Source: Deltaproteobacteria bacterium (lineage in GTDB: Bacteria; UBA10199; GCA-002796325; JACPFF01). Taken from it: DNA of 31,884 nucleotides. A model generated the notes under the pieces. The model was not told where the DNA came from. It ran no database searches and saw only the letters and a program-made list of their open reading frames with translations. The number at the start of each line of letters is the position of its first letter. Positions within the stretch are counted from its first letter, which is position 1. Both the position numbers and the translations under genes were made by a program. The stretch is from NCBI GenBank assembly GCA_016183065.1, contig JACPFF010000022.1, positions 1-31,884 of the forward strand, in the 5' to 3' direction. Positions 6,085-29,159 of the stretch are shown here, piece after piece.

Positions 6085-7046
6085 AGCACTCGCACCTTTT
6101 CCCACCATGTGAGACCGACACGCCCATGCAAAACGCCTACGGGATCGGCGGCGATTTTTTGCAACACGCGATGATACGCCCGCGACATGACACGGGCCGC
6201 ACGCATCAACCGCTGTTCATCCACGGTGAACCGCTCCCATGCCGAACGATAACAGGACTGCGCCCGGGCAATTTCGTAGAACATGAGGGACCGAAAGCGC
6301 TCACGATCGATGCCCGGACTCCCCCCGGCAGAGAACTGTGCTGCGGCAATGCCAAAATGGGCGAGATCGTCCTGCGGAAGATAGCAGCGGCCCCGCGCCG
6401 CATCCTCGCGGAGATCGCGCAGAATATTCGTCAGCTGAAAGGCATGGCCCAGGTTGATGGCCGCCTGCCGCGTGCGGTCCTCCTCACGCACGCCAAAGAT
6501 CGGGAGACACAAGAGGCCGACCGTGCCGGCCACGCTGTAACAATAATCGCGCAGCGCCGGCCAGTCGCGATAGGTTGCTGTCGTGATATCGCGCGCACAA
6601 CCTTCGAGCAATGCACGCGCATACCGTGGATGACACCCAAAGGTCCGTGCTCCCCACGCCAGTTCTGCCATCACCGGGTGACCGCTCTCCACGGGCCTTC
6701 CGTTGTCCAGCGTGGCGACGACCGAGTCCGGATACCCGCGAAGCGGGTGGACGAGGAAGTCCCACAGCGCGCACCGCGCGCGAGAGGGGGGGACCCAACG
6801 GGCTTTGCCCGTTGGGGGGGCGACGTGAGTCCCTCCAATAGTCGCCAGACGGGCGCGCCACTCGGAGAGCGCGGCCGCTTTCTCCCGCACGGGGCTTTCG
6901 GCATCGACCACGTCGTCAATGATGCGCGCAAAGGCATAGACGGCGCGCATCGCCCGTTGTTGATCGCGCGTCATGCCGCGAAACGCGAGCGCAAAGGTCG
7001 ACCCCGCCTGTTGCATGATCTGGCGACAATAGTGCTCGGCATTCAT
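6072..7046 (-). CDS. hpnD: presqualene diphosphate synthase HpnD, carrying an in-frame repeat insertion
   Basis: A trans-isoprenyl synthase that joins two farnesyl diphosphates to presqualene diphosphate. The two aspartate-rich motifs are intact: DDVVD near residue 45 and NILRDLREDAARG with CYLPQDD in the second half. The start is the ATG overlapping the hpnC stop (ATGA), followed by NAEHYCRQIM; a longer reading upstream lies inside hpnC and is rejected. The product is 324 residues. About 43 of these, between EWRARLATI and LDNGRPVESGHPV, are encoded by the modular repeat at 6712-6846; removing them leaves about 280, the usual size. The repeat lies in a loop after the first Asp motif, is antiparallel to the gene and keeps the frame. 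Whether the enzyme tolerates it cannot be judged from sequence. Confidence 0.93.
   Translation of the reverse strand: MNAEHYCRQIMQQAGSTFALAFRGMTRDQQRAMRAVYAFARIIDDVVDAESPVREKAAALSEWRARLATIGGTHVAPPTGKARWVPPSRARCALWDFLVHPLRGYPDSVVATLDNGRPVESGHPVMAELAWGARTFGCHPRYARALLEGCARDITTATYRDWPALRDYCYSVAGTVGLLCLPIFGVREEDRTRQAAINLGHAFQLTNILRDLREDAARGRCYLPQDDLAHFGIAAAQFSAGGSPGIDRERFRSLMFYEIARAQSCYRSAWERFTVDEQRLMRAARVMSRAYHRVLQKIAADPVGVLHGRVGLTWWEKVRVLCAS
6712..6846. repeat. modular hairpin repeat, copy 2 (inside hpnD)
   Basis: On the plus strand it starts GTGGCGACGACCGAGTCCGG, then an ACCCGCGAAGCGGGT hairpin, TGGACGAGGAAG, a GCGCGC-ACC-GCGCGC hairpin, and CCAACGGG-CTTTG-CCCGTTGG at 6795-6815. It ends CGACGTGAGTCCCTCCAATAGTCGC. 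All blocks recur, in a different order, in the copy at 12001-12245. It lies antisense to hpnD and leaves the hpnD frame open. Several other frames on both strands are also open through it. Confidence 0.93.
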
Positions 7047-7999
7047 CCGCGCCCCCGCATCGGGCCCATCTGCCTGACGCCCGTGGATGGCTGCCATCGG
7101 AGCATGCGCCAGCCCAGACGCCCCCAATCCGGCCAGCGCAGTGCCGGACGGGAAAAGAGATCGTACTGATTCGCCGTGATTTTCTCCAGGATGCGCATCC
7201 CGCCGAGCCATGTCAGGCGCAATTGACGCCGCAATGCCGGATGCGGCACTCTATCGCAAAGCAATCGCCCCTCGGCAAAGAGGGCGCGTGTCCGCGCCAC
7301 CTGAAAGGCCATCAATTGCCGGAGCGCTGGCGACCGCACCTGTTCCCGCAGCGCAGCCTCGGTCACGTGAAACCGTTCCAGATCCTCCTGCGGAATGTAG
7401 ATCCGCCCCGCCCCCTCGTTTTTGCGAAGGTCGATGGCCGCGTCTTGCCAAAAATTCGCGAGTTGCAGCGCCGTACAAATATTGTCGGAGGCCTCCATCC
7501 ACTGTTCATTCCCATAACCAAAGAGATGGAGCATCAATCGCCCCACCGGATTCGCCGAATGACGACAGTAGTGAAGGACTTCGCCAAATGAGCGATAGCG
7601 GGTTTTGGTGACATCGAGCATGAAGGCGGTGATCAGATCATTCAAGCAACCGACCGGGAGTTGGCGGGTGCGCAGCGTCTCACGGAGCGCAATAAAAACG
7701 GGATGCGCGAGCGTGGACGGTCCCACGGCCTGTCCCATGGCCTCCAACGCACATTGATGGAGCCAATGACGCCATTCCTGCAACCGGTCCATGCGCTGGC
7801 CCGCATATTGGGGTTCATCGGCAAAATCGTCCGCGCCACGGGCAAAGGCGTAAATATTGCAGATATGCTGTTTGAGATGCCGCGGGATCCACCACGACAC
7901 CACGGGGAAGTTTTCGTAATGCCCGAAGGTCACCCGACGCGTATACGCACAGGCCGCTGCCAGGGTGGGACGGGGTGGTGTCGGAGAGCTCGTCGACAT
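7043..7999 (-). CDS. hpnC: hydroxysqualene synthase HpnC
   Basis: A squalene/phytoene-synthase-fold enzyme expected to convert presqualene diphosphate to hydroxysqualene. Typical features are FGHYENFPV near the N-terminus, YAFARGADDFADE (first Asp-rich motif), LANFWQDAAIDLRK and GRIYIPQED (second motif), and ARTRALFAEG. The start is uncertain: ATG codons at 7999, 8017 and 8035 are all open and none has a strong ribosome site. 7999 gives the length closest to family members (318 residues). The stop overlaps the hpnD start in an ATGA junction, indicating translational coupling. It is preceded by thiI on the same strand, with a 32-bp dispersed repeat in the gap. Confidence 0.93.
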   Translation of the reverse strand: MSTSSPTPPRPTLAAACAYTRRVTFGHYENFPVVSWWIPRHLKQHICNIYAFARGADDFADEPQYAGQRMDRLQEWRHWLHQCALEAMGQAVGPSTLAHPVFIALRETLRTRQLPVGCLNDLITAFMLDVTKTRYRSFGEVLHYCRHSANPVGRLMLHLFGYGNEQWMEASDNICTALQLANFWQDAAIDLRKNEGAGRIYIPQEDLERFHVTEAALREQVRSPALRQLMAFQVARTRALFAEGRLLCDRVPHPALRRQLRLTWLGGMRILEKITANQYDLFSRPALRWPDWGRLGWRMLRWQPSTGVRQMGPMRGRG

Positions 8000-8040
8000 A
8001 TCGACCGTGGATACCATGAACACCGCGCATTGCAAATGTT

Positions 8041-9626: not shown

Positions 9627-12600
9627 ATGGCAAAGCATGAATCATCATCCATGACCACACACGAGAGGGGACTCACAATCTCCCGTCATTATACTACCCC
9701 CGGCATCGATCCACTCGATCAGGTCGAATACACCACTCGACGCTCCGTGATCACGAACCCTGACGGCTCGGTCGTCTTCGAAATGAATGATGTGGAAGTC
9801 CCGGCCTCCTGGAGCCAATTGGCCACCGACATTATTGTCTCCAAATACTTCCGGAAACGGGGCGTCCCAGGGGCCGGCCATGAGACCTCCGCACGGCAGG
9901 TCGTACACCGGATCGCCCATACGCTGCGGCAGGCCGGGGAATCGCTCGGCGGATATTTCGCGGGCGCAGACGATGCCGCCGCCTTTGAGGCGGAACTCGC
10001 ATATTGCCTCATTCACCAACATGGGGCCTTCAACTCCCCGGTCTGGTTCAACGTCGGTCTCTATCATGCCTATGGCATTACCGGCAGCGGCGGGAACTGG
10101 CACTGGAGTCCATTCAGTAAAACCATCGAAGAAACCGCAGACGCCTATTCCAATCCCCAGGGATCGGCCTGTTTTATCCAGCCTGTGCAGGACGACCTGA
10201 TGAGCATTTTCGACCTGGCCAAAAATGAGGCGCGCTTGTTTAAATACGGATCGGGTACGGGGACCAATTTCTCGCGGCTCCGCGGACGACAGGAGCGCCT
10301 TTCGGGCGGCGGGACTTCCTCGGGGCTCATGAGTTTTCTCGAAGTCCTTGATCGCGGGGCTGGGGCCACAAAATCTGGGGGGACAACACGACGGGCCGCG
10401 AAAATGGTCTCTCTCGACATGGACCACCCGGAAATAGCCGATTTTATCAACTGGAAGGCGCGCGAGGAAAAAAAGGTCCGCGCATTGATCGAGGCCGGCT
10501 ATCCCTCGGATTTCAACGGTGAGGCCTACCGGACTGTCTCCGGACAAAATTCCAACAATTCGGTCCGCATCCCCGACACCTTCATGGAAGCGTACCTCAA
10601 GGGCGGGAGCTGGGAGACAACCATGCGCACCACCGGCGAGGTCTGTGACACCTACGAGGCACGCGATCTGATGCAGCAAATCGCTCATGCCGCGTGGATG
10701 TGCGCCGACCCCGGTGTTCAGTTCGACACCACAATCAACACGTGGCACACCTGCAAAACCACCGACCGCATTTACGGCAGCAATCCCTGCAGCGAGTTCA
10801 TGTTCCTCGACAATACGTCCTGCAATCTGGCGAGTCTCAATCTCATGCACTTTTATGACCCAGGCACGGGCCTCTTCGATGTCGCGGCGTATCGTCATGC
10901 TACACGGATCTTTTTCATCGCGCAGGAAATCCTGGTCGATTTTGGGAGCTATCCCACAAAGACCATTGCGGAAAAGAGCCACAACTTTCGGCCGCTCGGT
11001 CTCGGCTATGCCAACATGGGGACCCTCCTCATGGTGCAGGGGGTCCCGTACGACTCGGACGAGGGACGGGCGATCTGCGCGGCGCTCACGGCCATTCTCA
11101 CCGGCCATGCCTATCGCACGTCCGCGGAAATGGCTGCGTCCAAGGGGCCGTTTCCGGCCTACACGACCAATCGCACGGCCATGCGCGACGTCATGGTCAT
11201 GCATCGCGACACGGCCTACCGCATCGACGCCGCGGCCTGTCCCACCAATCTGCTCGTCGCGGCCCGTGAAGACTGGGATCTCGCCCTCGACGCCGGCGAT
11301 CGCCATGGATATCGCAATGCGCAGGCCACCGTCTTGGCACCGACGGGCTGTCTCGTCGGGGGATCACTGATTCCGACAGAACGGGGACTCGTACGCCTCG
11401 AATCGCTCGGCAATCCGCGCGGCGCACAGTGGCAGGAGCTGCAACTCTCCGTCGCCACAGACCAAGGCTCGCAGCAGGCCACAAAGTTCTACGTCAATGG
11501 CGTGGAACCGGTCGTGACAGTAGAGACGGTCAGAGGACACCGGATCCAGGGGACACCGACCCACCGGATCAAAGTCGTGGAGCCATCGGGCGAGTGGGCC
11601 TGGCGGCGATTTGCCGAAGTGGAAGAGGGAGATCTCGTCCCTTTGGCCATGAGCACACTCGTCGGAGTGCCGCAACCCGTCGACCTCCCGCCTCCACCCG
11701 AGGTCTCTTGGACGACAGAGCATCTGCAGATTCCGCGCCGCATGAATGGAGCGCTTGCCGAATTGGTCGGTTATTTCATGGGCAATGGCTCACTCCATGC
11801 GAAAGGCTTACGTTTCTGCGTGACGGCCGAGGATACTGACGTTGTGGATCGACTCTCAGCGTTGGCGCAGCGGCTTTTTGCACTCTCTCCGACGATGACG
11901 AAGCAACAGGGATATACCGAAGTCATGTTGTCGTCTGTTTCACTGGTCCTCTGGTGGGAGGCCTGTGGATTTTCCAAGCATCCGCCCCACACAACAGAGA
12001 GTGGGGCCCCACGGGCTCACGCCCGTGGCACCTTGGAGGAGGCTTCACCTGAGCACGACACCCCCCGGACTGACGTCCGGGGCCCCACGACCCAGCGCGC
12101 ACCGCGCGCGAGAGGGGGGGACCCAACGGGCTTTGCCCGTTGGGGGGGCAGTGGCGACGACCGAGTCCGGGAACCCGCGAAGCGGGTGGACGAGGAAGTA
12201 CCCGCAGGCGGAGCCGGAGGGTACGTGAGCCCCTCCAATAGTGGCGAAGGCTATCTTGCGCACATTCCCGATGTCATCCTCCATAGTAACGACCGGGAGA
12301 TCTACGGGGCTTTTCTCCGCGGCCTCTATGAAGCCGACGGAACGGTCACCAATGGCATCCCCACATGGACCACCGTGTCATTTGATTTTTCGCGTGACGT
12401 CCAGGCCTTGGCGCTTGCACTTGGCTACCCCGCCACACGGCGCACGAATATCACGGGATGGGGAAATGCCCCCTGCGCGGTCCTCCGCCTCCTGAACATC
12501 TCCTCTGTCGCCCGCTGGCGAGATGAGATCGGCTTCATCAGTCGACGAAAAACTGAGGCCTTGCAGACTCACGATGTGCCACAGGCGGGACACAAAGATC

Positions 12601-14627
12601 ACATCCCGGTCTCACGAATACTCGTGGACCGCTTGGCGCCAGACAACACTCCTCTGCGGAAGAAACTCCTTCTCGCACTCTCCAGAAACAACATGGTCTC
12701 GCGTGATGCTGCCGAAGAACTCTATCAGGTCACAAAAGATCCTGAGCTGGGGCGACTCCTCTCCTTCTTCTATGACCGTGTCGCGCATGCCGAGCTCGGG
12801 GAAGAAGAGTGGACCTATGACCTCTCGGTTCCCGACAATGTCACCTACATTGCCAACGGCTTTGTGAGTCATAACACTATCGGGCTCCTGATGGATTGTG
12901 ACACCACGGGGATTGAACCGGATTTTGCCCTGGTGAAATTCAAAAAACTGGCGGGCGGCGGGTATTTCAAGATCATCAACCAGTCGATTCCATTGGCACT
13001 CAAGCGTCTGGGCTACACGGAATCGGAGATCACCGATATCGTGCAGCACATCAAGGGGACGTCGACACTCGCCAATGCCCCGGAGATCAACACCGAGCGT
13101 TTGCTTGCCAAAGGCGTGAGCCGAGAGGCCATTGGAAAGATTGAGTCCGCACTCCCGGGCGTCTTCGACCTCCGCTTTGCCTTCAACAGTTTTACCCTTG
13201 GCAAAGAAGAGGCCTCACTGGAGAGCTTGGGCTTCACCGACGCGCACATCGAGAGGGCCAATCGTCACATTTGCGGCACGATGACTATTGAAAGCGCCCC
13301 CCATCTGAAGCCGGAACACCTTCCGGTCTTCGATTGTGCCAATACCTGTGGCAAAGAGGGTCGCCGGTTTTTGCAACCGATGTCGCATGTCAAAATGATG
13401 GCGGCCGCGCAGCCATTCATTAGCGGGGCCATCTCCAAAACGATCAATGTCCCGCACAACACGACCCCTGAAGAGATCGAGGCGTTGTATGTGGAGTCAT
13501 GGCGCCTGGGCCTCAAGGCCGTGGCGTTGTATCGCGATGGATCGAAGAGTTCGCAACCGCTTTCCGCGTCGAGTGAGAAAAAGAAACCGACGACGGACGT
13601 GCAACCCGACGCACAACAACCCGAGGCCCCACTCCCCATGGTGGGGCCCCACAGGCTCACGCCCGTGGCACCCTGGGAGGAGGCTTCGCCTGAGCACGAC
13701 ACCCCCCGGACTGACGTCAGGGGCCCCACGGCCCAGCCGCACTGCGGCGCTGAGGGGGAGGCTCCAGCGGCTTTGCCGCTGGAGGGGGCGACGCGAGCCC
13801 CTCCAACAGTGGCAATCGCTGATGCCCCCCGCGTCGTCCGGAGGCGACGGCTCCCGAAGAAGCGCCTCGGCTTTACGCAGGAGGCCCGCATTGCCGGGAA
13901 CAAGATCTATCTCCGGACCGGCGAATACGACGACGGCACGCTCGGCGAACTCTTTATCGACATGCACAAGGAGGGTGCCGCCTACCGCAGTCTCGTCAAC
14001 TGTTTTGCCATTGCCGTCTCGCTCGGGCTGCAACACGGTGTCCCACTGGAAGAATACGTCGATGCCTTCACCTTTACCCGGTTTGATCCGTCCGGTCCCT
14101 GCGATCATCCCAATATCAAGATGGTCACATCGGCGATCGACTACATCTTCCGCGTCCTGGGCATGGAATACCTGGGACGCACCGACTTTGTGCAGATCAA
14201 GCCGGAGGAGGATACCCACGTTGAGGAGCCGCGCCCACCACAACTCCAGGGCAATGCCCGCAAAGTCGCACGGACCCTCGACAAACTGACAGGGAGCCTG
14301 CAGGTATCCCCCAACGGCGCCAAGGGGGGCCACGAGCCACTCCAGACGAACGGACAGGCCAATGGAAAGACCAATGGCCATGCACGACCGTCCGTACCAT
14401 CAACGGCGGAGGCCCATCCGATCGTCATCCCATCAACGAGTCAGGATACCGGCACGGCCAGTGGACTGCAGACGGCGAGCAGCGGTGCAACGTCCGTGGT
14501 CATGAGCGAACATCTCTCAGGCATGATGGGCGATGCCCCGTTCTGCGATCAGTGCGGGAATGTCACGGTCCGCAATGGCAGCTGCTATCGCTGCCTCAAC
14601 TGCGGGAATTCGATGGGCTGCTCCTAA
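9627..14627 (+). CDS. nrdJ: adenosylcobalamin-dependent (class II) ribonucleotide reductase NrdJ, intein-containing
   Basis: Reduces ribonucleotides to deoxyribonucleotides using a radical generated from adenosylcobalamin. The reading frame is 1666 residues; excising a 509-residue intein leaves about 1157. Class II signatures are present: VEVPASWSQLATDIIVSKYF, GSACF with Cys182, YGSGTGTNFSRLR, NPCSEFMF with Cys388 (the thiyl-radical position) and SCNLASLNL. The APTG-TIGLLMD phosphate-binding loop is split by the intein. The C-terminus has the RRRLPKKR-linked region with GNKIYLRTGEYDDGTLGELFIDMHK split over the TSCPD-like domain, and a CDQC...CYRCLNC zinc ribbon carrying redox-type cysteines. 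A modular repeat encodes about 57 residues of the linker before RRRLPKKR. The ATG follows a GGGGGAAG ribosome site. Two NrdR boxes precede it. Confidence 0.96.
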   Translation: MAKHESSSMTTHERGLTISRHYTTPGIDPLDQVEYTTRRSVITNPDGSVVFEMNDVEVPASWSQLATDIIVSKYFRKRGVPGAGHETSARQVVHRIAHTLRQAGESLGGYFAGADDAAAFEAELAYCLIHQHGAFNSPVWFNVGLYHAYGITGSGGNWHWSPFSKTIEETADAYSNPQGSACFIQPVQDDLMSIFDLAKNEARLFKYGSGTGTNFSRLRGRQERLSGGGTSSGLMSFLEVLDRGAGATKSGGTTRRAAKMVSLDMDHPEIADFINWKAREEKKVRALIEAGYPSDFNGEAYRTVSGQNSNNSVRIPDTFMEAYLKGGSWETTMRTTGEVCDTYEARDLMQQIAHAAWMCADPGVQFDTTINTWHTCKTTDRIYGSNPCSEFMFLDNTSCNLASLNLMHFYDPGTGLFDVAAYRHATRIFFIAQEILVDFGSYPTKTIAEKSHNFRPLGLGYANMGTLLMVQGVPYDSDEGRAICAALTAILTGHAYRTSAEMAASKGPFPAYTTNRTAMRDVMVMHRDTAYRIDAAACPTNLLVAAREDWDLALDAGDRHGYRNAQATVLAPTGCLVGGSLIPTERGLVRLESLGNPRGAQWQELQLSVATDQGSQQATKFYVNGVEPVVTVETVRGHRIQGTPTHRIKVVEPSGEWAWRRFAEVEEGDLVPLAMSTLVGVPQPVDLPPPPEVSWTTEHLQIPRRMNGALAELVGYFMGNGSLHAKGLRFCVTAEDTDVVDRLSALAQRLFALSPTMTKQQGYTEVMLSSVSLVLWWEACGFSKHPPHTTESGAPRAHARGTLEEASPEHDTPRTDVRGPTTQRAPRARGGDPTGFARWGGSGDDRVREPAKRVDEEVPAGGAGGYVSPSNSGEGYLAHIPDVILHSNDREIYGAFLRGLYEADGTVTNGIPTWTTVSFDFSRDVQALALALGYPATRRTNITGWGNAPCAVLRLLNISSVARWRDEIGFISRRKTEALQTHDVPQAGHKDHIPVSRILVDRLAPDNTPLRKKLLLALSRNNMVSRDAAEELYQVTKDPELGRLLSFFYDRVAHAELGEEEWTYDLSVPDNVTYIANGFVSHNTIGLLMDCDTTGIEPDFALVKFKKLAGGGYFKIINQSIPLALKRLGYTESEITDIVQHIKGTSTLANAPEINTERLLAKGVSREAIGKIESALPGVFDLRFAFNSFTLGKEEASLESLGFTDAHIERANRHICGTMTIESAPHLKPEHLPVFDCANTCGKEGRRFLQPMSHVKMMAAAQPFISGAISKTINVPHNTTPEEIEALYVESWRLGLKAVALYRDGSKSSQPLSASSEKKKPTTDVQPDAQQPEAPLPMVGPHRLTPVAPWEEASPEHDTPRTDVRGPTAQPHCGAEGEAPAALPLEGATRAPPTVAIADAPRVVRRRRLPKKRLGFTQEARIAGNKIYLRTGEYDDGTLGELFIDMHKEGAAYRSLVNCFAIAVSLGLQHGVPLEEYVDAFTFTRFDPSGPCDHPNIKMVTSAIDYIFRVLGMEYLGRTDFVQIKPEEDTHVEEPRPPQLQGNARKVARTLDKLTGSLQVSPNGAKGGHEPLQTNGQANGKTNGHARPSVPSTAEAHPIVIPSTSQDTGTASGLQTASSGATSVVMSEHLSGMMGDAPFCDQCGNVTVRNGSCYRCLNCGNSMGCS
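11349..12875 (+). mobile_element. intein with LAGLIDADG endonuclease, inserted in the NrdJ APTG|TIG loop
   Basis: A protein-splicing element at NrdJ residues 575-1083. The first residue is Cys575 after APTG (block A CLVGGSLIPTERG). Block B is GHRIQGTPTHRI. The end is block F YDLSVPDNVTYIANG followed by FVSHN, with penultimate His, terminal Asn1083 and Thr as +1 extein residue. All splicing residues are present, so splicing should work. Two endonuclease motifs are visible: LVGYFMGNGSL and FLRGLYEADG. In the first, the metal-binding acidic residue is Asn720, which suggests a weakened or dead endonuclease. A modular repeat of about 81 codons interrupts the endonuclease between the motifs. The insertion site is the most conserved loop of the reductase, as usual for inteins. 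Confidence 0.93.
12001..12245. repeat. modular hairpin repeat, copy 3 (inside the intein)
   Basis: The longest copy. In order: ACGGGCTCACGCCCGT hairpin, AGGCTTCACCT, CCCCGGAC-TGAC-GTCCGGGG hairpin, GCGCGC-ACC-GCGCGC hairpin, CCAACGGG-CTTTG-CCCGTTGG at 12123-12143, GTGGCGACGACCGAGTCCGG, CCCGCGAAGCGGG, TGGACGAGGAAG, an imperfect TACCCG...GGGTA hairpin, and the end block GTGAGCCCCTCCAATAGTGGC. It is read in frame as about 81 residues of the intein (792-872), between the two endonuclease motifs, where it would be removed by splicing. Confidence 0.93.
13639..13813. repeat. modular hairpin repeat, copy 4 (in the NrdJ C-terminal linker)
   Basis: Its first half follows copy 3 closely (GTGGGGCCCCAC, GCTCACGCCCGTGG, AGGCTTCGCCT, CCCCCGGACTGACGTC). 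Its second half follows copy 1: a short CCGCA-CTGCGG-type hairpin, the CTCCAGCGG-CTTTG-CCGCTGGAG hairpin at 13762-13784, then CGACGCGAGCCCCTCCAACAGTGGC. It is read in frame between the catalytic barrel end (ALYRDGSK) and RRRLPKKR as about 57 residues. Here, unlike copy 3, the encoded peptide stays in the mature enzyme, in what is normally a variable linker. Confidence 0.93.
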
Positions 14628-19310: not shown

Positions 19311-21134
19311 TTATTCCTTCGGCATCGATGCGGCCAGTTCGTCCAACAAGGCGACGACTTCCTGCGGATATCCCTCAAAATCATTTGCCTGAAGGTAACT
19401 CAGGCCGATGCGCTCCGCGGGGACGGGCCGGAGTTCCGGGAGGAGCAACGGAATGGCGGCACGCTCACTCATCTGCTGATAGGATTCAATGCCATCGCCG
19501 AGCAACATTAAACATGCAACAGCAGGGAGATAAAAGGCCAGCGATTCCCCACGGAGCCTCCAACGGGCGCGACTGAAGAATCGCGGTGGCTCTTCGTGTA
19601 GCAATTGGCCCATCAAAGTGACACTCTTTGCCATCTCGTTGACCGCGTTTTGCACACCTTCCGGACTGGTGTCCACTCTGCGCCTTTCCCCTCGTGTCGC
19701 TCGTGCGTTACCTTGCGTCGCCACAACATCCGTCGATTGTTGGGTACCTCCATCACCATCCTCACCATTCTCCGCGGCCATTCCAAGCATCTCTTTCGCG
19801 GATTGCACTTGGGACCCTGCCACGTTTTCGAGGGCCCCGCGGCGTGCCCGTTCGTACCGATGGCGGCGTCGGCGAAGCAAACTCCCGGCAATCATAAACC
19901 CGATAAACGCCCCCCACCCGGAATATCCCGACAACAAGTGAAAGTTGTCCCAGAATCGCTGCCAGACGCTCCGTATGGCAACCTGATAGAGATCGAGCAT
20001 CCCCGGGGGCTCGTTTGGCATATACTGCGCCAGCGGATTCTCCAGGGAGGCCCTCAGGGTCGCTTCATAGTCTGGACTCCGATACCGATCCATCAATTCA
20101 CAGAGATCGCCGCGGATCAGCGACTTACTGGCCAGTAAACGCGTCATCAAAATGGCCCGCTCTTCGTCTGTTTCCCCGAAACCTTGATCGAGCAATCTAC
20201 GCACATGACGCGCATGGAGCACCATGGCCTCGGCATTTTCTCCTTGAATACGGACGAGATGCTCTCCCAACCGTTCGGGCATATTTTGGCACAAAAATTG
20301 CCGCCCATCACTGAGCGGAATTGTCTTGGTCACTTCTGGATAGGCCAGATCGACGCGCACTTCTCTGGCAATGGCCTTGAGGGTTTCACCCGTGTGAAGC
20401 AAAGCGAGCTGCATTCCCTCTGCAACCGTCGCACCCCATGCCGCTTTATCGTCCGCGGAATGCCCATCGGCAAAGGCAAAATGATTCAGCAAGACATATG
20501 CCACCACGAGCCCTGTTTCCGCAGCCTCAACCCCCTTGAACATGCCGAGCACGGTATCGTGAACCTGTTGTGGGTCATCCAGACCGCCTGCGGCTTCGAG
20601 CCGCGCCATTCCCTCTTGAAGAGGAACCGCAGTGCTGTTCGCGGCATCGGTTTGCAGGTCGGGAGTGATCTGGATCCCGTCACCAATCACAAAACCTTCT
20701 GCTACTGCAGCGGGGGGGGGTGCCGGTTCTGCGGAACAACCCGTCATACTGAACGCGTATAACAAGAGACTGAAAAACCCAGCTCTCAGGGAAAACCCCG
20801 CCGCGCCCACATCCGCAACATGGCTCATCGCGGATACTGTGGGCGCTTGAGCGGTGTCTGTCTTGGCAAATTGCCTTGCCGAGGGTGTGGAATTGATATG
20901 AGCGATCGAACTACGCGACGGACGTAACGCGCGCGCATAACCATCAAACGACCGACGACCAGCCGGGTCCACTGCGAGGCCCTCGGTCACGAACAGCCGC
21001 CCCGAAGGGGTTTGAACGCCCAGCGCTGGACGGGCCTGAAGACACAGCTTCACGGTATTTGCACGATAGTGCGCCGCAAAGGGGCTGGAGGGACTGGCAG
21101 GGCTTCTGCGCAGATACGGCTGTGAACGCGACAT
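19311..21134 (-). CDS. large membrane-associated protein of unknown function
   Basis: A protein of 607 residues from the ATG at 21134, which has an excellent GGGAGGA ribosome site five bases away. The first 100 residues are Arg/Ser/Pro-rich. Then comes a hydrophobic stretch ending in a lipobox-like SMTGC, followed by EPAPPPAA. Starting instead at the ATG at 20828 would give a textbook lipoprotein signal, but no ribosome site precedes it. A helical middle region follows, then a GWGAFIGFMIAGS membrane segment followed by RRRRHR, a charged Gln/Ser linker and a second hydrophobic segment (FYLPAVACLMLLG) near the C-terminus. A run of nine C codes PPP right after the lipobox. The gene follows the 1126-residue membrane protein by 75 bases on the same strand, suggesting an operon. 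I recognise no family. Confidence 0.7.
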   Translation of the reverse strand: MSRSQPYLRRSPASPSSPFAAHYRANTVKLCLQARPALGVQTPSGRLFVTEGLAVDPAGRRSFDGYARALRPSRSSIAHINSTPSARQFAKTDTAQAPTVSAMSHVADVGAAGFSLRAGFFSLLLYAFSMTGCSAEPAPPPAAVAEGFVIGDGIQITPDLQTDAANSTAVPLQEGMARLEAAGGLDDPQQVHDTVLGMFKGVEAAETGLVVAYVLLNHFAFADGHSADDKAAWGATVAEGMQLALLHTGETLKAIAREVRVDLAYPEVTKTIPLSDGRQFLCQNMPERLGEHLVRIQGENAEAMVLHARHVRRLLDQGFGETDEERAILMTRLLASKSLIRGDLCELMDRYRSPDYEATLRASLENPLAQYMPNEPPGMLDLYQVAIRSVWQRFWDNFHLLSGYSGWGAFIGFMIAGSLLRRRRHRYERARRGALENVAGSQVQSAKEMLGMAAENGEDGDGGTQQSTDVVATQGNARATRGERRRVDTSPEGVQNAVNEMAKSVTLMGQLLHEEPPRFFSRARWRLRGESLAFYLPAVACLMLLGDGIESYQQMSERAAIPLLLPELRPVPAERIGLSYLQANDFEGYPQEVVALLDELAASMPKE

Positions 21135-21209
21135 GCTTCCTCCCGACACACCTATTATCGGCAGTACCGACAAAAAGTTGCGCCCGGAGGAGGGAAAAGA
21201 TCACGGCTC

Positions 21210-24200
21210 TTATTTCATGCCTCGTTCTCGTTTTCGCGCATCGATAGCCGCTCGATGGCCGTGGGCCGTCTGAATGAGGGTATGAATATCCACTGGCAAG
21301 CGTTTGGCATACTCTGTAGGAGCGAATGGCGTGCTGTCATATCTCACGCCCGCCAATTGCTCTTCGGTTATTACTCCACTTTTCACGAGAATGTCCGGAA
21401 ACTGATCGACCTCTTCAGGAGTGAGAGTTTCACCATTCTTCCATTTGGCCGCCGCGTCCAAGAGGATGGCCATTCCACGGGTTGGGTGTACACCCTCAAT
21501 CTCCAGTGCCACGATCTCCTGGTCGGTCAATGCCGTCCATTCAGCGGGTTGCCGCGCATCCGCGATCCTCAATGCCTGCATGAGATAGCAATAATTCCGG
21601 GCTTTTTCCCCTCCATCGGTCGCACGGCGGATCGCGCCGGCATATTCGCCCGCTTTCTTCTTCGAATATGTTCCCTGTTGGGCCACCATGTTTAACTCTG
21701 GCGAGGTGGTGAGCATATTCCCAAGGAAAAAATCCCATGTGTAGACCGGGAGACCAGCCACCGCAAAAGCAAAGCGCGTCGGGATGTTCGGGAGGATGTT
21801 CACAAAGCTTCGTCTGGAGACTCTATCCACCACCTCTTCCGGAATGTCACGACCGCCTTCCATGATCATGATCCCCAAAACACCCAATGCCGCAGTAATA
21901 GAGGAAAACTGCCCCGCGAAAGCCAGTTTCCTTGGCGATCGCAAAATTTGCCATGTACCAAGGGCCCCTCCAACAACACGGGTCGATACAGCGGCCAAGG
22001 AGCGATAGACGGCACGCGTCACCATCCCAGCCTCTGGGGCAAGGAACTCCGCTCTTGCAAAAACCCGTTGGACCCCCTCCGCACTCTCGGCCAATGCCGC
22101 TATGTCTGGATGCGCAGCGGCAACGCGTCGCGCTGTTCTCGCAGCGTTCCCAAGCTCTCTGACCTCTCTCCATTCACGCACGGCACGGGTGAATTGATTG
22201 TCAATGATGACAGGATTATCCTGCAAGACCCGTGCAAAAGGATTGGGAGCTCCATACTGCCAGCCGTGTCTCAAATGATATTGCACGCGCCCGAAGAAGC
22301 CCTCTGGGGGCGTCGAGATACTGGCCCGATACTGCGCCGCTGCAGTTCGTCCTGTAGTCCACCACGCTTCCAATGTGTGGCCAATGCCCTGTGCAAATGC
22401 CTGACGGACTCCTGCTGCCGCGTGTGCCAATCGAGTCCCGCCTGTCGCAGGTGCCACGACAGGGGCATGGATGATCCGGCGAATATGACCGAGAAGACTG
22501 GCGACTCCCTCCTCCGCACGCCAGAGTGGGTCATTCAACATGCGAGAGAGTGGCCCTATGACCGCCCACCCCTTTGCAGAGCCTGCCCACGTACCAAAAA
22601 ATGATACGGCAAAGGCAAAACTGAAGACGTGGCCGTGCCAATTCCAGAAATCGAAATGGTCCCAAAAGCCCGTGCGCGGGGCCTTGCCGTAAATTTTGGT
22701 ATCTGCGGCCTCTTGCAAGGCAGAGTTTTCGCTGAGCGTATAGTAGAGGCCGTAGAACATCGCAACCACCGCTGATACGGAAAATGCCAAATTCCTTGCC
22801 GGAATACGCTGTGTTGGATTGCTCGGATTCAACATCGTATTGGCCACAGGATGGCGATACTGGCTGGCAATATAGAGGAGCGACAGCGCGAACTCGGATC
22901 CCATGACAATATTTCGCCATTGATCGATCGTGGCCGGTTCGATACCGTTGAACGCAAAGAGTTTCATGAATTTCTCGGGAGTCGCGAGGACCTTTGAATC
23001 GACCAGATAGCACATCAGCGCCAATGGTGCGAGTTTCTGGGCAATCACCTGACCAGCGAACTGTCGCACGGACAAAATGGCACGTCGTGTGAGGGCCCGA
23101 TAGGCGGAGTGAATCCCATAAGTCAGGGCGCTCCCCAATCCGAGACGGACGGACCAGTCAACCAGCTCCCGATTGTTGCCAAACCACCCGGCGCCCGCCT
23201 TGCTATTCAGCGCACGGCACGCCACATTGGTGCCGTGTTCATCTACACAGACCCCGAGGGCCTCTTGCGCTACATCGACGCCAAGGCCCAGGGTATACCG
23301 ATCGGCGGTGGTCAAACCACGAATCGCAATCCGGAAAAATGCTGGCAGCTGTAAGGCCCACGACAGTCCCGGGATTTTTTCCCAGTTTTCTTCAGCAGCG
23401 AGGGCGCTGACAACGGCCAAGTAACCCCCGGGATGCACATCTGCCGGCGTACTATTGGGGATGGCGACTCTGACGTCCGGGAAAACGACCGCATTCGCTT
23501 CCAGGGCCTGTCGAAGTTGTTCTGCCGTACTGGGCGCTTCTCCAGCTTCCGCAGGCGTTGATGATGCGGCGGATGCGACTACGGAAGCGGGCGCGGATTG
23601 GCGGTATTTGGCAAAGGTCGCCATGGCACGGTCGAGGGCGTCAAAATCGGCTGGCGTGGCATGTGCGAAGATCTTTTTGATCTGGTCGTCGTAGAGGGCG
23701 TCGAAACCGAAGAGGGCGGCCGTGAGCATCATCACTTTTTTCTGGTCGACCTTCAGGGGCTTGGATTTGCTATTGTTGATGGTGACCTGAGCCGGATCTC
23801 CGCATGCCTCGCCTGCGGTGCATGCCTTTGACCAGACCGTACCATTGTGAAAGAGGGCGGTCTCCTCGCGACGTGTCTCAGCGTTGGTAGCCTTATTATA
23901 GTATTGATTCACGACACCGATGCAGCCATCAGCGACCGTATCGAAGAATGTGGATGAATGCGCTGTCTCCTCGGTAAAAGGATCGAGGTCGACAAATTGT
24001 CCTTTATCGTCACTCTCTTTGATCAATGTGACGCCGAGAAATTCGTTGATGTCGCCGCGTAGCTCCGGTGTGATCGTGTACGATTTTTTTGCCGCTGCCA
24101 GGCCCCGAAATGTCACCATCGCCGCTTCCAACAGCTTGGCGTCTTCGGTCGTGGCCGAACGCAATATGGCGGCCTGGCTTGTCTGGCCCCGGCCCCCGTC

Positions 24201-24590
24201 GTGCAAGGCCCCGAAGCCAAAGAGGGCGGCCACGAAGGCCATGTAGCGTTTCTTGTCGATCGTTTCGCCGGCTACGGCAAACCCGCTTTCCGTGGCAGGA
24301 GTGCAGATGGCATAGTCCGCTGAACAGGTCTGGGCATGGCCCTGCTCGGGCGCTCTTTTCTTCGCCGTGGAGAAGATCGCGTGTTCATAGACCCGGCCGT
24401 CAGACAATGACCGTCGGACACCGATGACCCCATCTTCTCCCCCACTGAGAAATGATTTGGTATTGGCATCGGCGTAGGTGTCGATGACTTCGGAATTTTT
24501 ATCGTCGTCTGAAAAGAAGGCGGTCTCCAGGAACTGATTTGCCGCTGCGATAAAACTCAAGTCTATTCTTTTGCTGTCGCCAATGCCCAT
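21210..24590 (-). CDS. giant polytopic membrane protein with duplicated N-terminal domain
   Basis: A protein of 1126 residues with no family that I recognise. The N-terminus carries two diverged copies of a domain of about 150 residues (about 10-163 and 180-328). Each has GxIGV, a pair of Cys (89/96 and 257/263), a (V/I)DxKK...AALFGFxALxD core and an AT..D...L..AM.TF end. An Ala/Ser linker and about eight likely membrane segments follow, for example LAPLALMCYLV, FALSLLYIAS, VSAVVAMFYGLYYTL, FSFAFAVSFFG and AALGVLGIMIM, then a helical C-terminus ending KRERGMK. No signal peptide is seen. GGAG lies at good distance before the ATG. It is probably co-transcribed with the following 607-residue gene. 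Base composition looks less GC-rich than the housekeeping genes nearby, which could mean later acquisition. Confidence 0.75.
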   Translation of the reverse strand: MGIGDSKRIDLSFIAAANQFLETAFFSDDDKNSEVIDTYADANTKSFLSGGEDGVIGVRRSLSDGRVYEHAIFSTAKKRAPEQGHAQTCSADYAICTPATESGFAVAGETIDKKRYMAFVAALFGFGALHDGGRGQTSQAAILRSATTEDAKLLEAAMVTFRGLAAAKKSYTITPELRGDINEFLGVTLIKESDDKGQFVDLDPFTEETAHSSTFFDTVADGCIGVVNQYYNKATNAETRREETALFHNGTVWSKACTAGEACGDPAQVTINNSKSKPLKVDQKKVMMLTAALFGFDALYDDQIKKIFAHATPADFDALDRAMATFAKYRQSAPASVVASAASSTPAEAGEAPSTAEQLRQALEANAVVFPDVRVAIPNSTPADVHPGGYLAVVSALAAEENWEKIPGLSWALQLPAFFRIAIRGLTTADRYTLGLGVDVAQEALGVCVDEHGTNVACRALNSKAGAGWFGNNRELVDWSVRLGLGSALTYGIHSAYRALTRRAILSVRQFAGQVIAQKLAPLALMCYLVDSKVLATPEKFMKLFAFNGIEPATIDQWRNIVMGSEFALSLLYIASQYRHPVANTMLNPSNPTQRIPARNLAFSVSAVVAMFYGLYYTLSENSALQEAADTKIYGKAPRTGFWDHFDFWNWHGHVFSFAFAVSFFGTWAGSAKGWAVIGPLSRMLNDPLWRAEEGVASLLGHIRRIIHAPVVAPATGGTRLAHAAAGVRQAFAQGIGHTLEAWWTTGRTAAAQYRASISTPPEGFFGRVQYHLRHGWQYGAPNPFARVLQDNPVIIDNQFTRAVREWREVRELGNAARTARRVAAAHPDIAALAESAEGVQRVFARAEFLAPEAGMVTRAVYRSLAAVSTRVVGGALGTWQILRSPRKLAFAGQFSSITAALGVLGIMIMEGGRDIPEEVVDRVSRRSFVNILPNIPTRFAFAVAGLPVYTWDFFLGNMLTTSPELNMVAQQGTYSKKKAGEYAGAIRRATDGGEKARNYCYLMQALRIADARQPAEWTALTDQEIVALEIEGVHPTRGMAILLDAAAKWKNGETLTPEEVDQFPDILVKSGVITEEQLAGVRYDSTPFAPTEYAKRLPVDIHTLIQTAHGHRAAIDARKRERGMK

Positions 24591-24925
24591 CGCTCGCTCC
24601 GTTGTCTTGGGGGCGAAAACGCGGGATTTCCGCCCTCCTTACTTGTCCATCGGCAGCGCGAAAAAAAAGTTGCGTGGTTTTTTTTGTTGATGGTGGTCGA
24701 TCAGCACACGGTACAGGTGATGTTCAATAGCACTGCACGATAGCTCAAGGGGCCTTCGCACAAAGGAGGCCTCTTGCAGAGACCGCTGACGGGACGCGAT
24801 GCAATGTAACATGTTGTGATTACTCATCTTCTGCCGTGACAAAGCTCGAAGGCATCTGCGGGTGCCCGACTGGATCGTCATCGAACGACACTGGTGGGGT
24901 CCGTGGTGCCCCTGTCATCATCACA
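24591..24925. other. intergenic region without a recognised gene
   Basis: These 335 bases separate vapC from the giant membrane protein gene and presumably hold the promoter of the latter on the minus strand. No open frame here looks coding. Two structures are visible: A8 (24661-24668) facing T8 (24678-24685) across nine bases, and a GC-rich hairpin at 24746-24776. Neither shows a clean terminator or operator pattern. Confidence 0.6.
24746..24776. terminator. possible hairpin downstream of vapC
   Basis: CAAGGGGCC (24746-24754) can pair with GGCCTCTTG (24768-24776) with one G-T pair. It lies downstream of the vapC stop on the minus strand, but no T-run follows, so a terminator role is only possible. 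Confidence 0.25.
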
Positions 24926-25369
24926 CTATGCCTCAAGCGGATTGATGAGGGTAATGTTCGCAAAGAGGCGAAAGTCGGTGTCGGCGGTATAGATGGTCGA
25001 AATGCCATGTTCCGTCATTAATGCAACATGGTGCGCATCATGTAAAATATTCCCTCGTGATTTTCCGCACTGATGGACGATGCGATGCAGGGTGTCCAAG
25101 TGGTTCGGCAATTCCTGCACAATCATCACATTGGGAGCTTCCATAAATTTGGCGACGTTTTCTCTGGCGTGTTCAAACAGAATCGCCCCAGACGGGAAAA
25201 GTCTGGGCTGGGTGACCACCCGCAAATACTCGTATACCACCGACCAGCTCATCGCATACTGCGAGTGGCTTTTGCGGCATGCCCGCAAGAATTTCAGGGC
25301 CACCTTATGCTCCGGAAAAGCCGGGTACGTGGCATAGACAAAAATGTTGGTATCGATAAACCCGCTCAT
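24926..25369 (-). CDS. vapC: PIN-domain ribonuclease toxin (VapC family)
   Basis: A protein of 147 residues with the PIN-domain acidic set: Asp6 in FIDTNIFVYA, Glu47 in VVYEYLRV, Asp111 in LHDAHHVALM, and Asp130/Asp132 in TADTDF. VapC toxins are Mg-dependent endoribonucleases that cut tRNA or rRNA. The ATG overlaps the stop of the upstream ribbon-helix-helix gene (ATGA), the standard VapBC arrangement with antitoxin first. All catalytic positions are intact, so it should be active when not bound by antitoxin. Confidence 0.9.
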   Translation of the reverse strand: MSGFIDTNIFVYATYPAFPEHKVALKFLRACRKSHSQYAMSWSVVYEYLRVVTQPRLFPSGAILFEHARENVAKFMEAPNVMIVQELPNHLDTLHRIVHQCGKSRGNILHDAHHVALMTEHGISTIYTADTDFRLFANITLINPLEA

Positions 25370-26517: not shown

Positions 26518-26567
26518 ACCGCAGTCGACCCTAGACATTGCGACCGCTCACATGCTACCCCGCCACG

Positions 26568-29159
26568 ATGTCGTTTTCTTGGGGGCGATGGAGCCGGTGT
26601 CTTGAACGACGTGCGATCGCCATTTCTCTCGCCTCGATCCTCGTCAGCCTCGTCAGCCTCTTCCTCGTTCGCGACCTTCCCATCCATAGTGATTTCAAAA
26701 AAATGCTCCCGCAGAACTCCCGGAGCGTCAGGGAACTCGAGCGCATTGAGGCCCGCGTGACCTCGACCTCGACCCTCCATCTCCTGGTGGGGGCCCAGGA
26801 TTTTGCGGCGATCAAACGGTTCATTGACGACTTCGTGGCGCTGGCCCCAACGGCGCTCGGGGATCTCGTCGATCGTGTGGAATACAATGCCACGCCCGTG
26901 ATCGACTTTTTCCGGCACCACGAATGGCTCTATCTCGACCTCGAGGACCTCCAGACCGTCAAGGACCGCGTCGCGCAGCAGATCAACTATGAAAAGATGC
27001 GGCAATCACCGCTCTTCATCGACCTGGGTGCGCGACCATCACTCAATTTTGACGACTTGCAAAGCAAAGTCCACCGACACCACCGCGACCGTCCCAATTT
27101 TCGGGAGGGCTATTTTACGAATCTCGAGCAGGACCTCGCGATTGTCGTCCTGAAACCGACGGTGGGGGCCACCGACGTGAAAACCGTAAAATACCTGATC
27201 CAGCGGGTGCAACAGGTGGTGGACCAGCTCGGTCCACAGCGCTATCACCCCACACTGCGGACCGGTTTTGGCGGGCGCTATCAAAAACTGGTCGTGGAAT
27301 ACGAGACGATCGTCGGGGACATGCTCCGGACGATCGTCCTCTGTGTGCTTCTCGTCAGCAGCATCGTGGGGCTCTACTTCCGCCGCCTCCGCGTGATTGT
27401 GCTGATGGTCGGGGCGGCGGGCATGGGGACCCTGATGGCGCTCGTCAGCGCCCGCCTCACGATCGGCTACCTGACGGCGCAGACCGCCTTTCTCGGCTCG
27501 ATCATCCTCGGGAACGGGATCAACTACAGCCTCATTGTCATGGCCCGCTTTCTGGAGGAATGCGGTGCAGCGGGCACGTCGAACAGTACCGCGCTCGCGA
27601 CCGCGCTCTCTCGCACGTGGCGCCCCACGTTTGCCTCGGCCCTCACGACCTCACTGGCCTTTGCCGCGCTCGGGATCACGAACATCCGCGGTCTCAACCA
27701 GTTCGGCCTGATCGGGAGCATCGGCATCATGGCCTGCTGGGCCGCCACCTTCAGCGTGCTACCGGCATGGATCGTCGTCACACAGCGGCTCCGTCCGCTC
27801 CGCAACACGGCACACAACAACGGCCCGCCGTTCGGCTGGCTCCTGCGGCCCATTGCCGCCCTGGTGTCACAGCGACCGCGTGCCGTGCTCCTCGGCGCCG
27901 TGGGCGTGACCATACTCTGCGTCATTTCGGCGGTACGCTATCTCCCCGCGGCCCTCGAGTACAATTTCAACAACCTTCGGTTCCGTCCCGCCGCCCCGGC
28001 AGAGACCTGGGAGGCACACGCCCGCGACAGCGCCGATGAAATCTTCGGCCAGTCCGCCTCGCCGGCAGTGCTGCTGGCCGATCGCATCGATCAGGTCCGT
28101 CCGCTTTGCGCGGCCATCGAAGCACGCGCGGCCTCGGTCGTGAACGCACGCGGCGACCCGCTCGTGGATGAATGCCGCTCCATTTTCTCCTTCATCCCCC
28201 TGCACCAACGGGAAAAACTGGCGCTCCTTGCCGAGTTGCGCACACTCCTCGACGATGAATCTCTCGCGACACGCACGCCCGAGGAAGAGGACCTCCTCGC
28301 GCGGCTCCGCGCCACGGCGGAACTGGCGCCCATCACCCAATCCGATCTCCCGGCGCTGCTGCGCGAGGTCTTCCGGGAAAATGACGGCCGCGAGGGACTC
28401 GTCGTCTATCTCTACCCCACACGGATCGCCAATCTGTGGGATGGTCATGAATTGGTGCAATTTGCCGATCTGATCCGCCGCGTTCAGCTGCCGGGCTCCG
28501 AGACCATTCATGCCTCCGGGGAGTCCGTGATTTTTGCCGATCTCCTGCATGCCATCGTCACCGAGGGACCGCGCACGACCCTCTCTTCCTTTCTGCTCGT
28601 CCTGCTGGGCATCTGGATATTGTTTCGCCGGCAGCGCCGCGCTTTCTTCTCGATCATCGGCGTCTTGTGCATCGGGATCCTCTGGATGATCTGCCTCTTT
28701 CCGGTGGTCGGAGTGAAACTGAATTTTCTCAATTTTGTCGCCCTCCCCATCGCCTTCGGGATTGGCGTCGATTATGCGGTCAACATTTATAGTCGCGCCA
28801 CAGAGCATCCGGGCGAGACCGTCCGCGAGGGCCTGCTCCACATCGGCAGTGTGGTCCTCCTCTGCTCACTCACCACCATGTTCGGCTATGCCGTACTCAT
28901 GGTCTCGCGCAATCGCGCGCTGGCAAGCCTCGGCACGGCCGCACTGCTGGGCGAACTCGCCTGCCTCACGAGTGCCCTCTGTGTCCTGCCGGCCTGGCTG
29001 GCCTGGCGAAGGCCGGTCCCCGCGCACGCAGGGGAGGAGCCGCCCTGTCGGACGTTCCCATTGGACGAAGCGGCGGGATCTGCTACACTGATGGTTCATG
29101 ACCATTGCCACGGAACTGATCCACAAGCTCCCCAAGACCGATCTCCATGTCCATCTTGA
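26568..29159 (+). CDS. RND/MMPL-family exporter, likely HpnN-like hopanoid transporter
   Basis: An inner-membrane transporter of 863 residues with the two-repeat RND layout. An N-terminal helix (ISLASILVSLVSLFLV) precedes a periplasmic domain. A membrane bundle follows: MLRTIVLCVLLVSSIVGLYF, GTLMALVSARLTIGYLT, SIILGNGINYSLIVMARFLE, then the ALTTSLAFAALGIT block. A second periplasmic domain and bundle follow, with FGIGVDYAVNIYSR as the typical RND helix-4 motif. HpnN proteins of this class move hopanoids to the outer membrane; assignment rests on size, layout and the hpnCDE genes elsewhere in the window. The start ATG at 26568 is preferred over an upstream TTG; no clear ribosome site. The 3' end overlaps the adenosine deaminase gene by 62 bases. 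Confidence 0.8.
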   Translation: MSFSWGRWSRCLERRAIAISLASILVSLVSLFLVRDLPIHSDFKKMLPQNSRSVRELERIEARVTSTSTLHLLVGAQDFAAIKRFIDDFVALAPTALGDLVDRVEYNATPVIDFFRHHEWLYLDLEDLQTVKDRVAQQINYEKMRQSPLFIDLGARPSLNFDDLQSKVHRHHRDRPNFREGYFTNLEQDLAIVVLKPTVGATDVKTVKYLIQRVQQVVDQLGPQRYHPTLRTGFGGRYQKLVVEYETIVGDMLRTIVLCVLLVSSIVGLYFRRLRVIVLMVGAAGMGTLMALVSARLTIGYLTAQTAFLGSIILGNGINYSLIVMARFLEECGAAGTSNSTALATALSRTWRPTFASALTTSLAFAALGITNIRGLNQFGLIGSIGIMACWAATFSVLPAWIVVTQRLRPLRNTAHNNGPPFGWLLRPIAALVSQRPRAVLLGAVGVTILCVISAVRYLPAALEYNFNNLRFRPAAPAETWEAHARDSADEIFGQSASPAVLLADRIDQVRPLCAAIEARAASVVNARGDPLVDECRSIFSFIPLHQREKLALLAELRTLLDDESLATRTPEEEDLLARLRATAELAPITQSDLPALLREVFRENDGREGLVVYLYPTRIANLWDGHELVQFADLIRRVQLPGSETIHASGESVIFADLLHAIVTEGPRTTLSSFLLVLLGIWILFRRQRRAFFSIIGVLCIGILWMICLFPVVGVKLNFLNFVALPIAFGIGVDYAVNIYSRATEHPGETVREGLLHIGSVVLLCSLTTMFGYAVLMVSRNRALASLGTAALLGELACLTSALCVLPAWLAWRRPVPAHAGEEPPCRTFPLDEAAGSATLMVHDHCHGTDPQAPQDRSPCPS

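What the first reader, a model, noticed from the sequence alone, without database searches (positions are those of the whole stretch)
19311..24590. Unrecognised two-gene membrane system with a duplicated novel domain
A 1126-residue polytopic protein and a 607-residue membrane-associated protein are encoded together and match no family I know. The larger one starts with two diverged copies of a domain of about 150 residues marked by AALFGFxALxD, a Cys pair and AT..D..L..AM.TF. This could be a new secretion, surface-display or envelope complex.
Basis: partly seen in the sequence, partly recalled or inferred. Interest (0 to 1): 0.75.

Follow-up and report, generated by a model that had tools for sequence, protein, structure and literature searches.

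The report
Paired genes of a secretion-linked regulon
Two neighbouring bacterial genes of unknown family turn out to be an inherited partnership, switched on by the same special promoter, and are probably accessory cargo or helpers of a type III secretion machine found throughout this uncultured bacterial class.

Summary
The observation mostly holds. Gene A (window 24590-21210, 1126 aa) and gene B (21134-19311, 607 aa) are adjacent and match nothing in Pfam, NCBIfam, PHROGs, PADLOC or PDB. A carries a real 28%-identical duplication. Three corrections: the duplicated domain is an orphan found only in this genome; "polytopic" is doubtful (hydrophobic peaks 1.64 and 1.70, against 2.4-3.0 for membrane proteins of the same genome); and the pair is not alone. 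Held-out profiles place A's core and B in two families that sit side by side in 7 of 46 genomes of the class (8 pairs), with correlated divergence (r=0.82, 0/5040 permutations).

New lead: each gene has its own upstream CAACTTTT-N10-GCCGAT promoter. A stricter form of the motif recurs in 41/46 genomes (0 in reversed controls) and lies before relatives of A and B. A FliA/WhiG-like sigma factor, a plausible reader of it, is encoded inside a type III secretion cluster that also carries LcrH/SycD-like chaperones.

Best reading: accessory, probably exported, membrane-active substrate pair of a type III system resembling the needleless one of Myxococcus. Shown: families, pairing, promoter, sigma linkage. 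Inferred: that this sigma reads the motif, export, membrane insertion, target. Structure prediction failed (pLDDT 39 and 52).

The parts
21210..24590 (-). Gene A, 1126 aa: orphan duplicated N-terminal domain + family A core split by an insertion
   Evidence: ORF; held-out profile of 7 relatives, E 3.5e-14 against 2683 ORFs
19311..21134 (-). Gene B, 607 aa partner; ATG start with GGAGGAAGC ribosome-binding site
   Evidence: ORF; held-out B profile E 1.7e-7 against 2683 ORFs
24649..24674 (-). FliA-like promoter CGCAACTTTT-N10-GCCGAT of gene A, 58 bp before the start codon
   Evidence: score 32.6
21155..21182 (-). FliA-like promoter CGCAACTTTT-N10-GCCGATAA of gene B, between A and B
   Evidence: score 39.4
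24108..24539 (-). Duplicated domain, copy 1 (residues 18-161)
23613..24047 (-). Duplicated domain, copy 2 (residues 182-326)
22527..23177 (-). Family A core, first part (residues 472-688)
   Evidence: held-out profile match, independent E 5.3e-10; BLASTP to the G044 relative
21951..22526 (-). Segment inserted in the core, largely specific to the window protein (residues 689-880)
   Evidence: held-out profile skips it; relatives are much shorter here
21564..21950 (-). Family A core, second part (residues 881-1009)
   Evidence: held-out profile match, weak on its own (independent E 0.0078)
19878..20579 (-). Family B core (residues 186-419)
   Evidence: held-out profile match, independent E 1e-6

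Best explanation
[quoted passage not shown] A FliA/WhiG-family sigma factor encoded inside the T3SS cluster directs RNA polymerase to GCAACTTTT-N10-GCCGATAA promoters in front of both genes and of about a dozen other, mostly orphan, genes of this genome. The products, which show no N-terminal signal peptide by eye and carry only moderately hydrophobic helices, are handled by the LcrH/SycD-like chaperones of the cluster, exported by the T3SS, and act together in a target membrane as a membrane-inserting effector pair or accessory pore. Shown: families, pairing, co-divergence, promoter motif, sigma gene and chaperone-like genes in the T3SS cluster. Inferred: that this sigma reads this motif, chaperone binding, export, membrane insertion and the target.
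For: Held-out profiles: window A matches the A family at E 3.5e-14, window B the B family at E 1.7e-7 among 2683 ORFs. Full-length A and B occur in the same 7 of 46 genomes, always adjacent; distance matrices of the 8 pairs correlate, r 0.82, 0/5040 permutations, and the two cassettes of G029 pair with different cousins. Promoter: 15 sites in G000 against 0 in the reversed-pattern control, two of them in front of A and B; class-wide 41/46 genomes, 0 in every control; present before A/B genes or the first gene of their cluster in G029 (x3, plus a neighbouring gene), G014 (x2), G022, G019 (x2, plus a neighbouring gene). Sigma: FliA/WhiG hit of 134 bits at C15:231507-232142, inside the T3SS cluster with SctV, SctJ, SctD-like FHA/PEGA, SctN, SctL, SctQ, SctS, SctT and a weak SctI; within 20 kb of SctV in 11 genomes by my count. 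Three TPR proteins whose best NCBIfam hit is LcrH_SycD (46-70 bits), the chaperone class of translocators. Hydrophobicity of A/B lies below that of six inner-membrane proteins of the same genome, as reported for T3SS-exported membrane proteins (PMC6110835). Other promoter-linked genes: 7 of 10 without Pfam family, 3 hydrolase or transglutaminase-like.
Against: No experiment; export is not shown. Low hydrophobicity also fits soluble helical proteins. No match to known translocator families. Patchy distribution (7/46 genomes against 44/46 for SctV) speaks against an obligatory translocon. Some promoter-linked genes look to have ordinary signal peptides (subtilase L097; gingipain-like L049), so the regulon is not purely T3SS cargo. 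In G000 the cassette is on another contig than the T3SS cluster. The sigma is below the FliA family cut-off (133 of 189.6 bits). AlphaFold models are unusable (pLDDT 39.4 and 51.6).
Confidence: 0.5

Rival explanations
1. A and B are non-exported accessory proteins of the same regulon: an inner-membrane or cytoplasmic complex that docks to or adapts the T3SS or another envelope structure in some lineages.
For: Same promoter and sigma linkage; B relatives of one family have a conserved N-terminal helical segment followed by a hydrophobic stretch (63% identity over the first 74 residues between the two G029 copies against about 23% elsewhere), as a docking segment might.
Against: Hydrophobic segments are weaker than those of inner-membrane proteins of the genome; patchy distribution; not linked to the T3SS cluster in G000.
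Confidence: 0.2
2. The sigma regulon is not about type III secretion: the sigma gene sits in the T3SS cluster by history and governs a broader surface or lifestyle programme (predation, attachment), of which A/B is an envelope module.
For: Regulon genes include proteins with apparent signal peptides and an 821-aa protein whose C-terminal half looks outer-membrane-like by eye; the scanned T3SS region has no site in front of structural genes, only one at its far edge; several families of the class have few or no sites although they keep the SctV/FlhA gene.
Against: Sigma-T3SS linkage kept in 11 genomes on one contig; flagellar FliA likewise acts on late genes away from the main operons (own knowledge).
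Confidence: 0.18
3. A and B are a toxin with its partner (chaperone, immunity or activator), exported or not, unrelated to pore formation.
For: Strict pairing and co-divergence; neighbouring small or HExxH-containing genes in G019 and G029.
Against: No catalytic motif or toxin family seen; both proteins are large and both have hydrophobic stretches.
Confidence: 0.1
4. The pair is an ORF or assembly artefact.
For: The window protein A is far longer than its relatives (1126 against 548-689 aa).
Against: Homologous segments on both sides of the insertion in one frame, no stop codons, own promoters, relatives in independent public assemblies.
Confidence: 0.02

Closest known systems
Myxococcus xanthus 'needleless' T3SS* ('Myxo' NF-T3SS; PMC3459982, PMC12075869, PMC10849154)
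   Same: T3SS gene cluster in a former deltaproteobacterial lineage, without recognisable needle in G000 and without recognised translocon; kinase, FHA and PEGA proteins in the G000 cluster
   Different: Here a FliA-like sigma lies inside the cluster and a genome-wide promoter regulon exists; whether Myxococcus has either was not tested. A and B have not been looked for in Myxococcota by profile
T3SS translocators (SctE/SctB: YopB/YopD, SipB/SipC) and their LcrH/SycD chaperones
   Same: Two adjacent genes, helical by prediction, moderately hydrophobic segments; LcrH/SycD-like TPR proteins in the T3SS cluster
   Different: No sequence match to any Pfam translocator family; larger; accessory distribution; not next to the chaperone genes
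FliA (sigma 28) late flagellar regulon
   Same: Minus-10 GCCGATAA, a fixed spacing in nearly all sites, a FliA/WhiG-family sigma encoded within a T3SS cluster
   Different: Minus-35 is GCAACTTTT rather than the TAAAGTTT I recall for FliA; the sigma scores below the FliA cut-off; targets seen are not flagellar; the G000 cluster is of non-flagellar type
Moderately hydrophobic T3SS/T4SS effector membrane proteins (PMC6110835)
   Same: Hydrophobicity peaks below those of resident inner-membrane proteins
   Different: Only composition compared; export not tested

Membership tests
T3SS translocators (SctE/SctB) | Sequence match to a Pfam translocator family (YopB/SseC-like or YopD-like) | tested here: not met
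   no Pfam family of this kind at E up to 0.1-1
T3SS translocators (SctE/SctB) | Cognate class II (LcrH/SycD) TPR chaperone | tested here: inconclusive
   three TPR proteins in the T3SS cluster with LcrH_SycD as best hit, 46-70 bits, below the 104.8 cut-off; binding to A/B unknown
T3SS translocators (SctE/SctB) | Present wherever the T3SS delivers into cells | tested here: not met
   A/B in 7/46 genomes, SctV/FlhA family in 44/46
T3SS translocators (SctE/SctB) | Secretion by the T3SS and insertion into a target membrane | not testable with these tools
   needs an experiment
T3SS-exported membrane effectors | Hydrophobic segments below those of resident inner-membrane proteins | tested here: met
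   maxima 1.64 and 1.70 against 2.38-3.02 in six proteins of the same genome; criterion from PMC6110835, applied with a simpler scale
FliA-type sigma regulon | GCCGATAA minus-10 at fixed spacing from a minus-35, upstream of the gene | tested here: met
   13 of 15 exact sites in G000 have N10; sites before both window genes (A has GCCGATGG, B GCCGATAA)
FliA-type sigma regulon | A FliA/WhiG sigma factor in the genome | tested here: inconclusive
   E about 1e-38, 133-134 bits, best NCBIfam hit TIGR02479 but below its cut-off of 189.6
Non-flagellar needleless T3SS ('Myxo' type) | SctJ, SctN, SctT, SctV with SctI, no needle | tested here: met
   for G000: core present, SctI weak (18.1 bits, under its cut-off), no needle match
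Non-flagellar needleless T3SS ('Myxo' type) | No dedicated secretin | not tested
   no secretin among the cluster ORFs scanned in Pfam, but not every ORF was scanned and the genome was not searched for secretins
Characterised transporter, secretion or defence families for A/B | Full-length profile match | tested here: not met

The most novel reading that the evidence does not exclude
A/B is a new kind of two-component membrane-inserting device delivered by a needleless T3SS, one member of a large, class-wide effector regulon that can be read from the genome by a FliA-like promoter motif in an uncultured lineage for which I found no study of secretion.
Probability: 0.3. Interest if true: 0.82.

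Novelty: new variant of a known kind. Interest (0 to 1): 0.6.

Why it matters
If right, the promoter motif plus the T3SS-linked sigma gives a ready-made list of candidate secreted proteins in a whole class of uncultured bacteria, and a handle on an open question: what a T3SS without a recognisable needle or translocon secretes and how it acts on its target. The A/B pair would be one of the first named candidates, with family profiles that make it searchable elsewhere.

Tried and rejected
1) Idea that the duplicated N-domain of A is the Cys-containing 'CxNF' domain of B relatives (which would have been fusion evidence): rejected; hhalign finds nothing and shuffled sequences score as well or better. 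2) Single-sequence searches of genome contigs and of relatives found none or one weak relative; only profiles worked. The class-wide alignment could not be turned into search patterns. A three-member alignment gave three named genomes, all already known by handle, and nothing in viral contigs. 3) AlphaFold on A and B relatives with 5-row alignments: pLDDT 39.4 and 51.6, unusable; Foldseek on the B model gave no match below E 0.2; the A model was not searched. 4) PDB profile search: nothing credible. 5) Needle protein search: no match over cut-off in any genome; weak matches next to SctV in G041 and G030 leave a divergent needle possible there. 6) B as a lipoprotein (internal SMTGC at about residue 128): not favoured, because the promoter and ribosome-binding site place the start at 21134.

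Full report
WHAT IS THERE. The window is contig C3 of a 1.97 Mb, 30-contig genome of 89% completeness (G000). Gene A (24590-21210) and gene B (21134-19311) lie on the minus strand with a 75-bp gap. The duplication in A is real: residues 18-161 and about 182-326, 28% identity, pairwise E 3e-11. Neither protein has a family in Pfam, NCBIfam, PHROGs or PADLOC.

THE PAIR IS A FAMILY. One weak relative of A in the class lay beside an unrelated-looking second gene. A two-sequence profile of the A core then reached four more genomes, with both halves of the core in one open frame in most of them, and each hit sat next to a second large gene. Profiles built without the window proteins recover them: A at E 3.5e-14 and B at E 1.7e-7 among 2683 distinct ORFs. 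Searching all 46 genomes of the class, full-length A and full-length B fall in the same 7 genomes (G000, G014, G019, G022, G029 twice, G043, G044; 4 families), always adjacent; only short A-like genes in G016 and one short B-like frame in G007 stand alone. In G043 and G022 a small gene lies between or beside the two. Pair distances correlate (r 0.82; 0 of 5040 sampled permutations), and the two cassettes of G029 each pair with the right cousin. In G014, G029 and G019 the cassette lies beside genes that look by eye like surE-pcm-apt, a fixed slot. Caveat: related genomes are not independent observations, and the chance of 1.9e-8 for perfect co-occurrence ignores that.

THE DUPLICATED DOMAIN. 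A profile of the two copies finds only the two copies, in none of 45 other genomes. It is a private extension of this lineage's A protein, as is an insertion at residues 689-880. The eye-catching likeness to a Cys-containing segment of B relatives failed a profile test.

THE PROMOTER. Each gene is preceded by CGCAACTTTT-N10-GCCGAT: A 58 bp, B about 27 bp before the start codon. With a spacing of 8-14 allowed, G000 has 15 exact sites, 13 of them with N10, and none for the reversed pattern. GCAACTTTTTN9GCCGATAA with up to one mismatch occurs in 41 of 46 genomes, up to 80 per genome, with zero control hits everywhere. Sites with high scores lie before A or B relatives or the first gene of their cluster in G029 (B1, A2, B2, and a neighbouring gene), G014 (A, and B where the site overlaps the annotated start), G022 and G019. 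G043 has no convincing site before A or B, and G044 only a looser one. The minus-10 equals that of FliA (sigma 28) as I know it; the minus-35 differs from TAAAGTTT. Genes behind the motif in other genomes are mostly orphans: 7 of 10 scanned are without Pfam family, the others a subtilase, a transglutaminase-like protein and an alpha/beta hydrolase.

THE SIGMA AND THE MACHINE. The FHIPEP family (SctV/FlhA) is in 44 of 46 genomes. In G000 its cluster (C15: about 220-250 kb) has SctV, SctJ, an FHA/PEGA SctD-like protein, SctN, SctL/FliH, SctQ/FliM, SctS, SctT, a FliG-like protein, a weak SctI (18.1 bits, under its cut-off of 32.4), and a kinase; SctR was read by eye only. No needle match reaches the family cut-off in any of the 46 genomes and none is seen in G000; secretins were not searched for genome-wide. 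This resembles the Myxococcus 'needleless' T3SS* (PMC3459982; PMC12075869). Inside the cluster lies a FliA/WhiG-family sigma factor (C15:231507-232142, 134 bits, below the FliA cut-off of 189.6), and a comparable sigma lies within 20 kb of SctV in 11 genomes, G000 included, by my count. Three TPR proteins of the cluster have LcrH_SycD, the translocator-chaperone family, as best hit, at 46-70 bits, under the cut-off.

HOW IT PROBABLY WORKS. Shown: pairing, families, promoter, sigma gene and chaperone-like genes in the T3SS cluster. Inferred: the sigma reads the motif; A and B are made late, kept export-competent by chaperones, sent out by the T3SS, and act together in a target membrane. The hydrophobicity test fits export: the best 19-residue means of A and B (1.64, 1.70; relatives 1.3-2.0) stay below those of six inner-membrane proteins of the same genome (2.4-3.0), and T3SS/T4SS membrane effectors are reported to lie just below the targeting threshold (PMC6110835). 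It would equally fit soluble helical proteins. Because A/B is in 7 of 46 genomes while SctV is in 44, an accessory effector pair is likelier than an obligatory translocon. The AlphaFold models (pLDDT 39.4 and 51.6) decide nothing.

VERDICT. The lasting value lies in the regulon: a promoter motif and a T3SS-linked sigma that together point to many unstudied candidate secreted proteins. I file it as a new variant of a known kind (T3SS-associated proteins), not as a member of a translocator family, because sequence membership was tested and not met. Novelty of the regulon rests on seven literature searches of one open-access library, which is not exhaustive.

Noticed in passing
window 9627-14627 (+): Class II (B12-type) ribonucleotide reductase ORF interrupted by an intein with a LAGLIDADG domain.
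   Followed up: no
window 4717-8035 (-) and 26538-29159 (+): Two squalene/phytoene synthase-like genes and an amine oxidase (hopanoid-type cluster), and an MMPL transporter-like gene.
   Followed up: no
window 24926-25369 (-): PIN-domain protein, probably with a small antitoxin-like ORF upstream (upstream ORF read by eye).
   Followed up: no
L075:14188-15438 (-) and L094:9919-11184 (-): Related 416/421-aa proteins carrying HELRH / HEFYH (HExxH-like) motifs beside the A/B cassettes; the first has no Pfam family.
   Followed up: partly
L130:6224-8080 (-) and L130:10072-11586 (-): The first ~74 residues of the two G029 B copies are 63% identical while the rest is about 23%: possibly a shared chaperone or export segment.
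   Followed up: partly
window 21134-19311 (-), residues about 109-130 of B: Internal hydrophobic stretch ending in SMTGC, lipobox-like, far from the N-terminus.
   Followed up: no
L094:3168-5909 (-): 913-aa protein beside the G019 cassette with a very weak A-like C-terminal match (iE 0.16) and its own promoter-like site.
   Followed up: no
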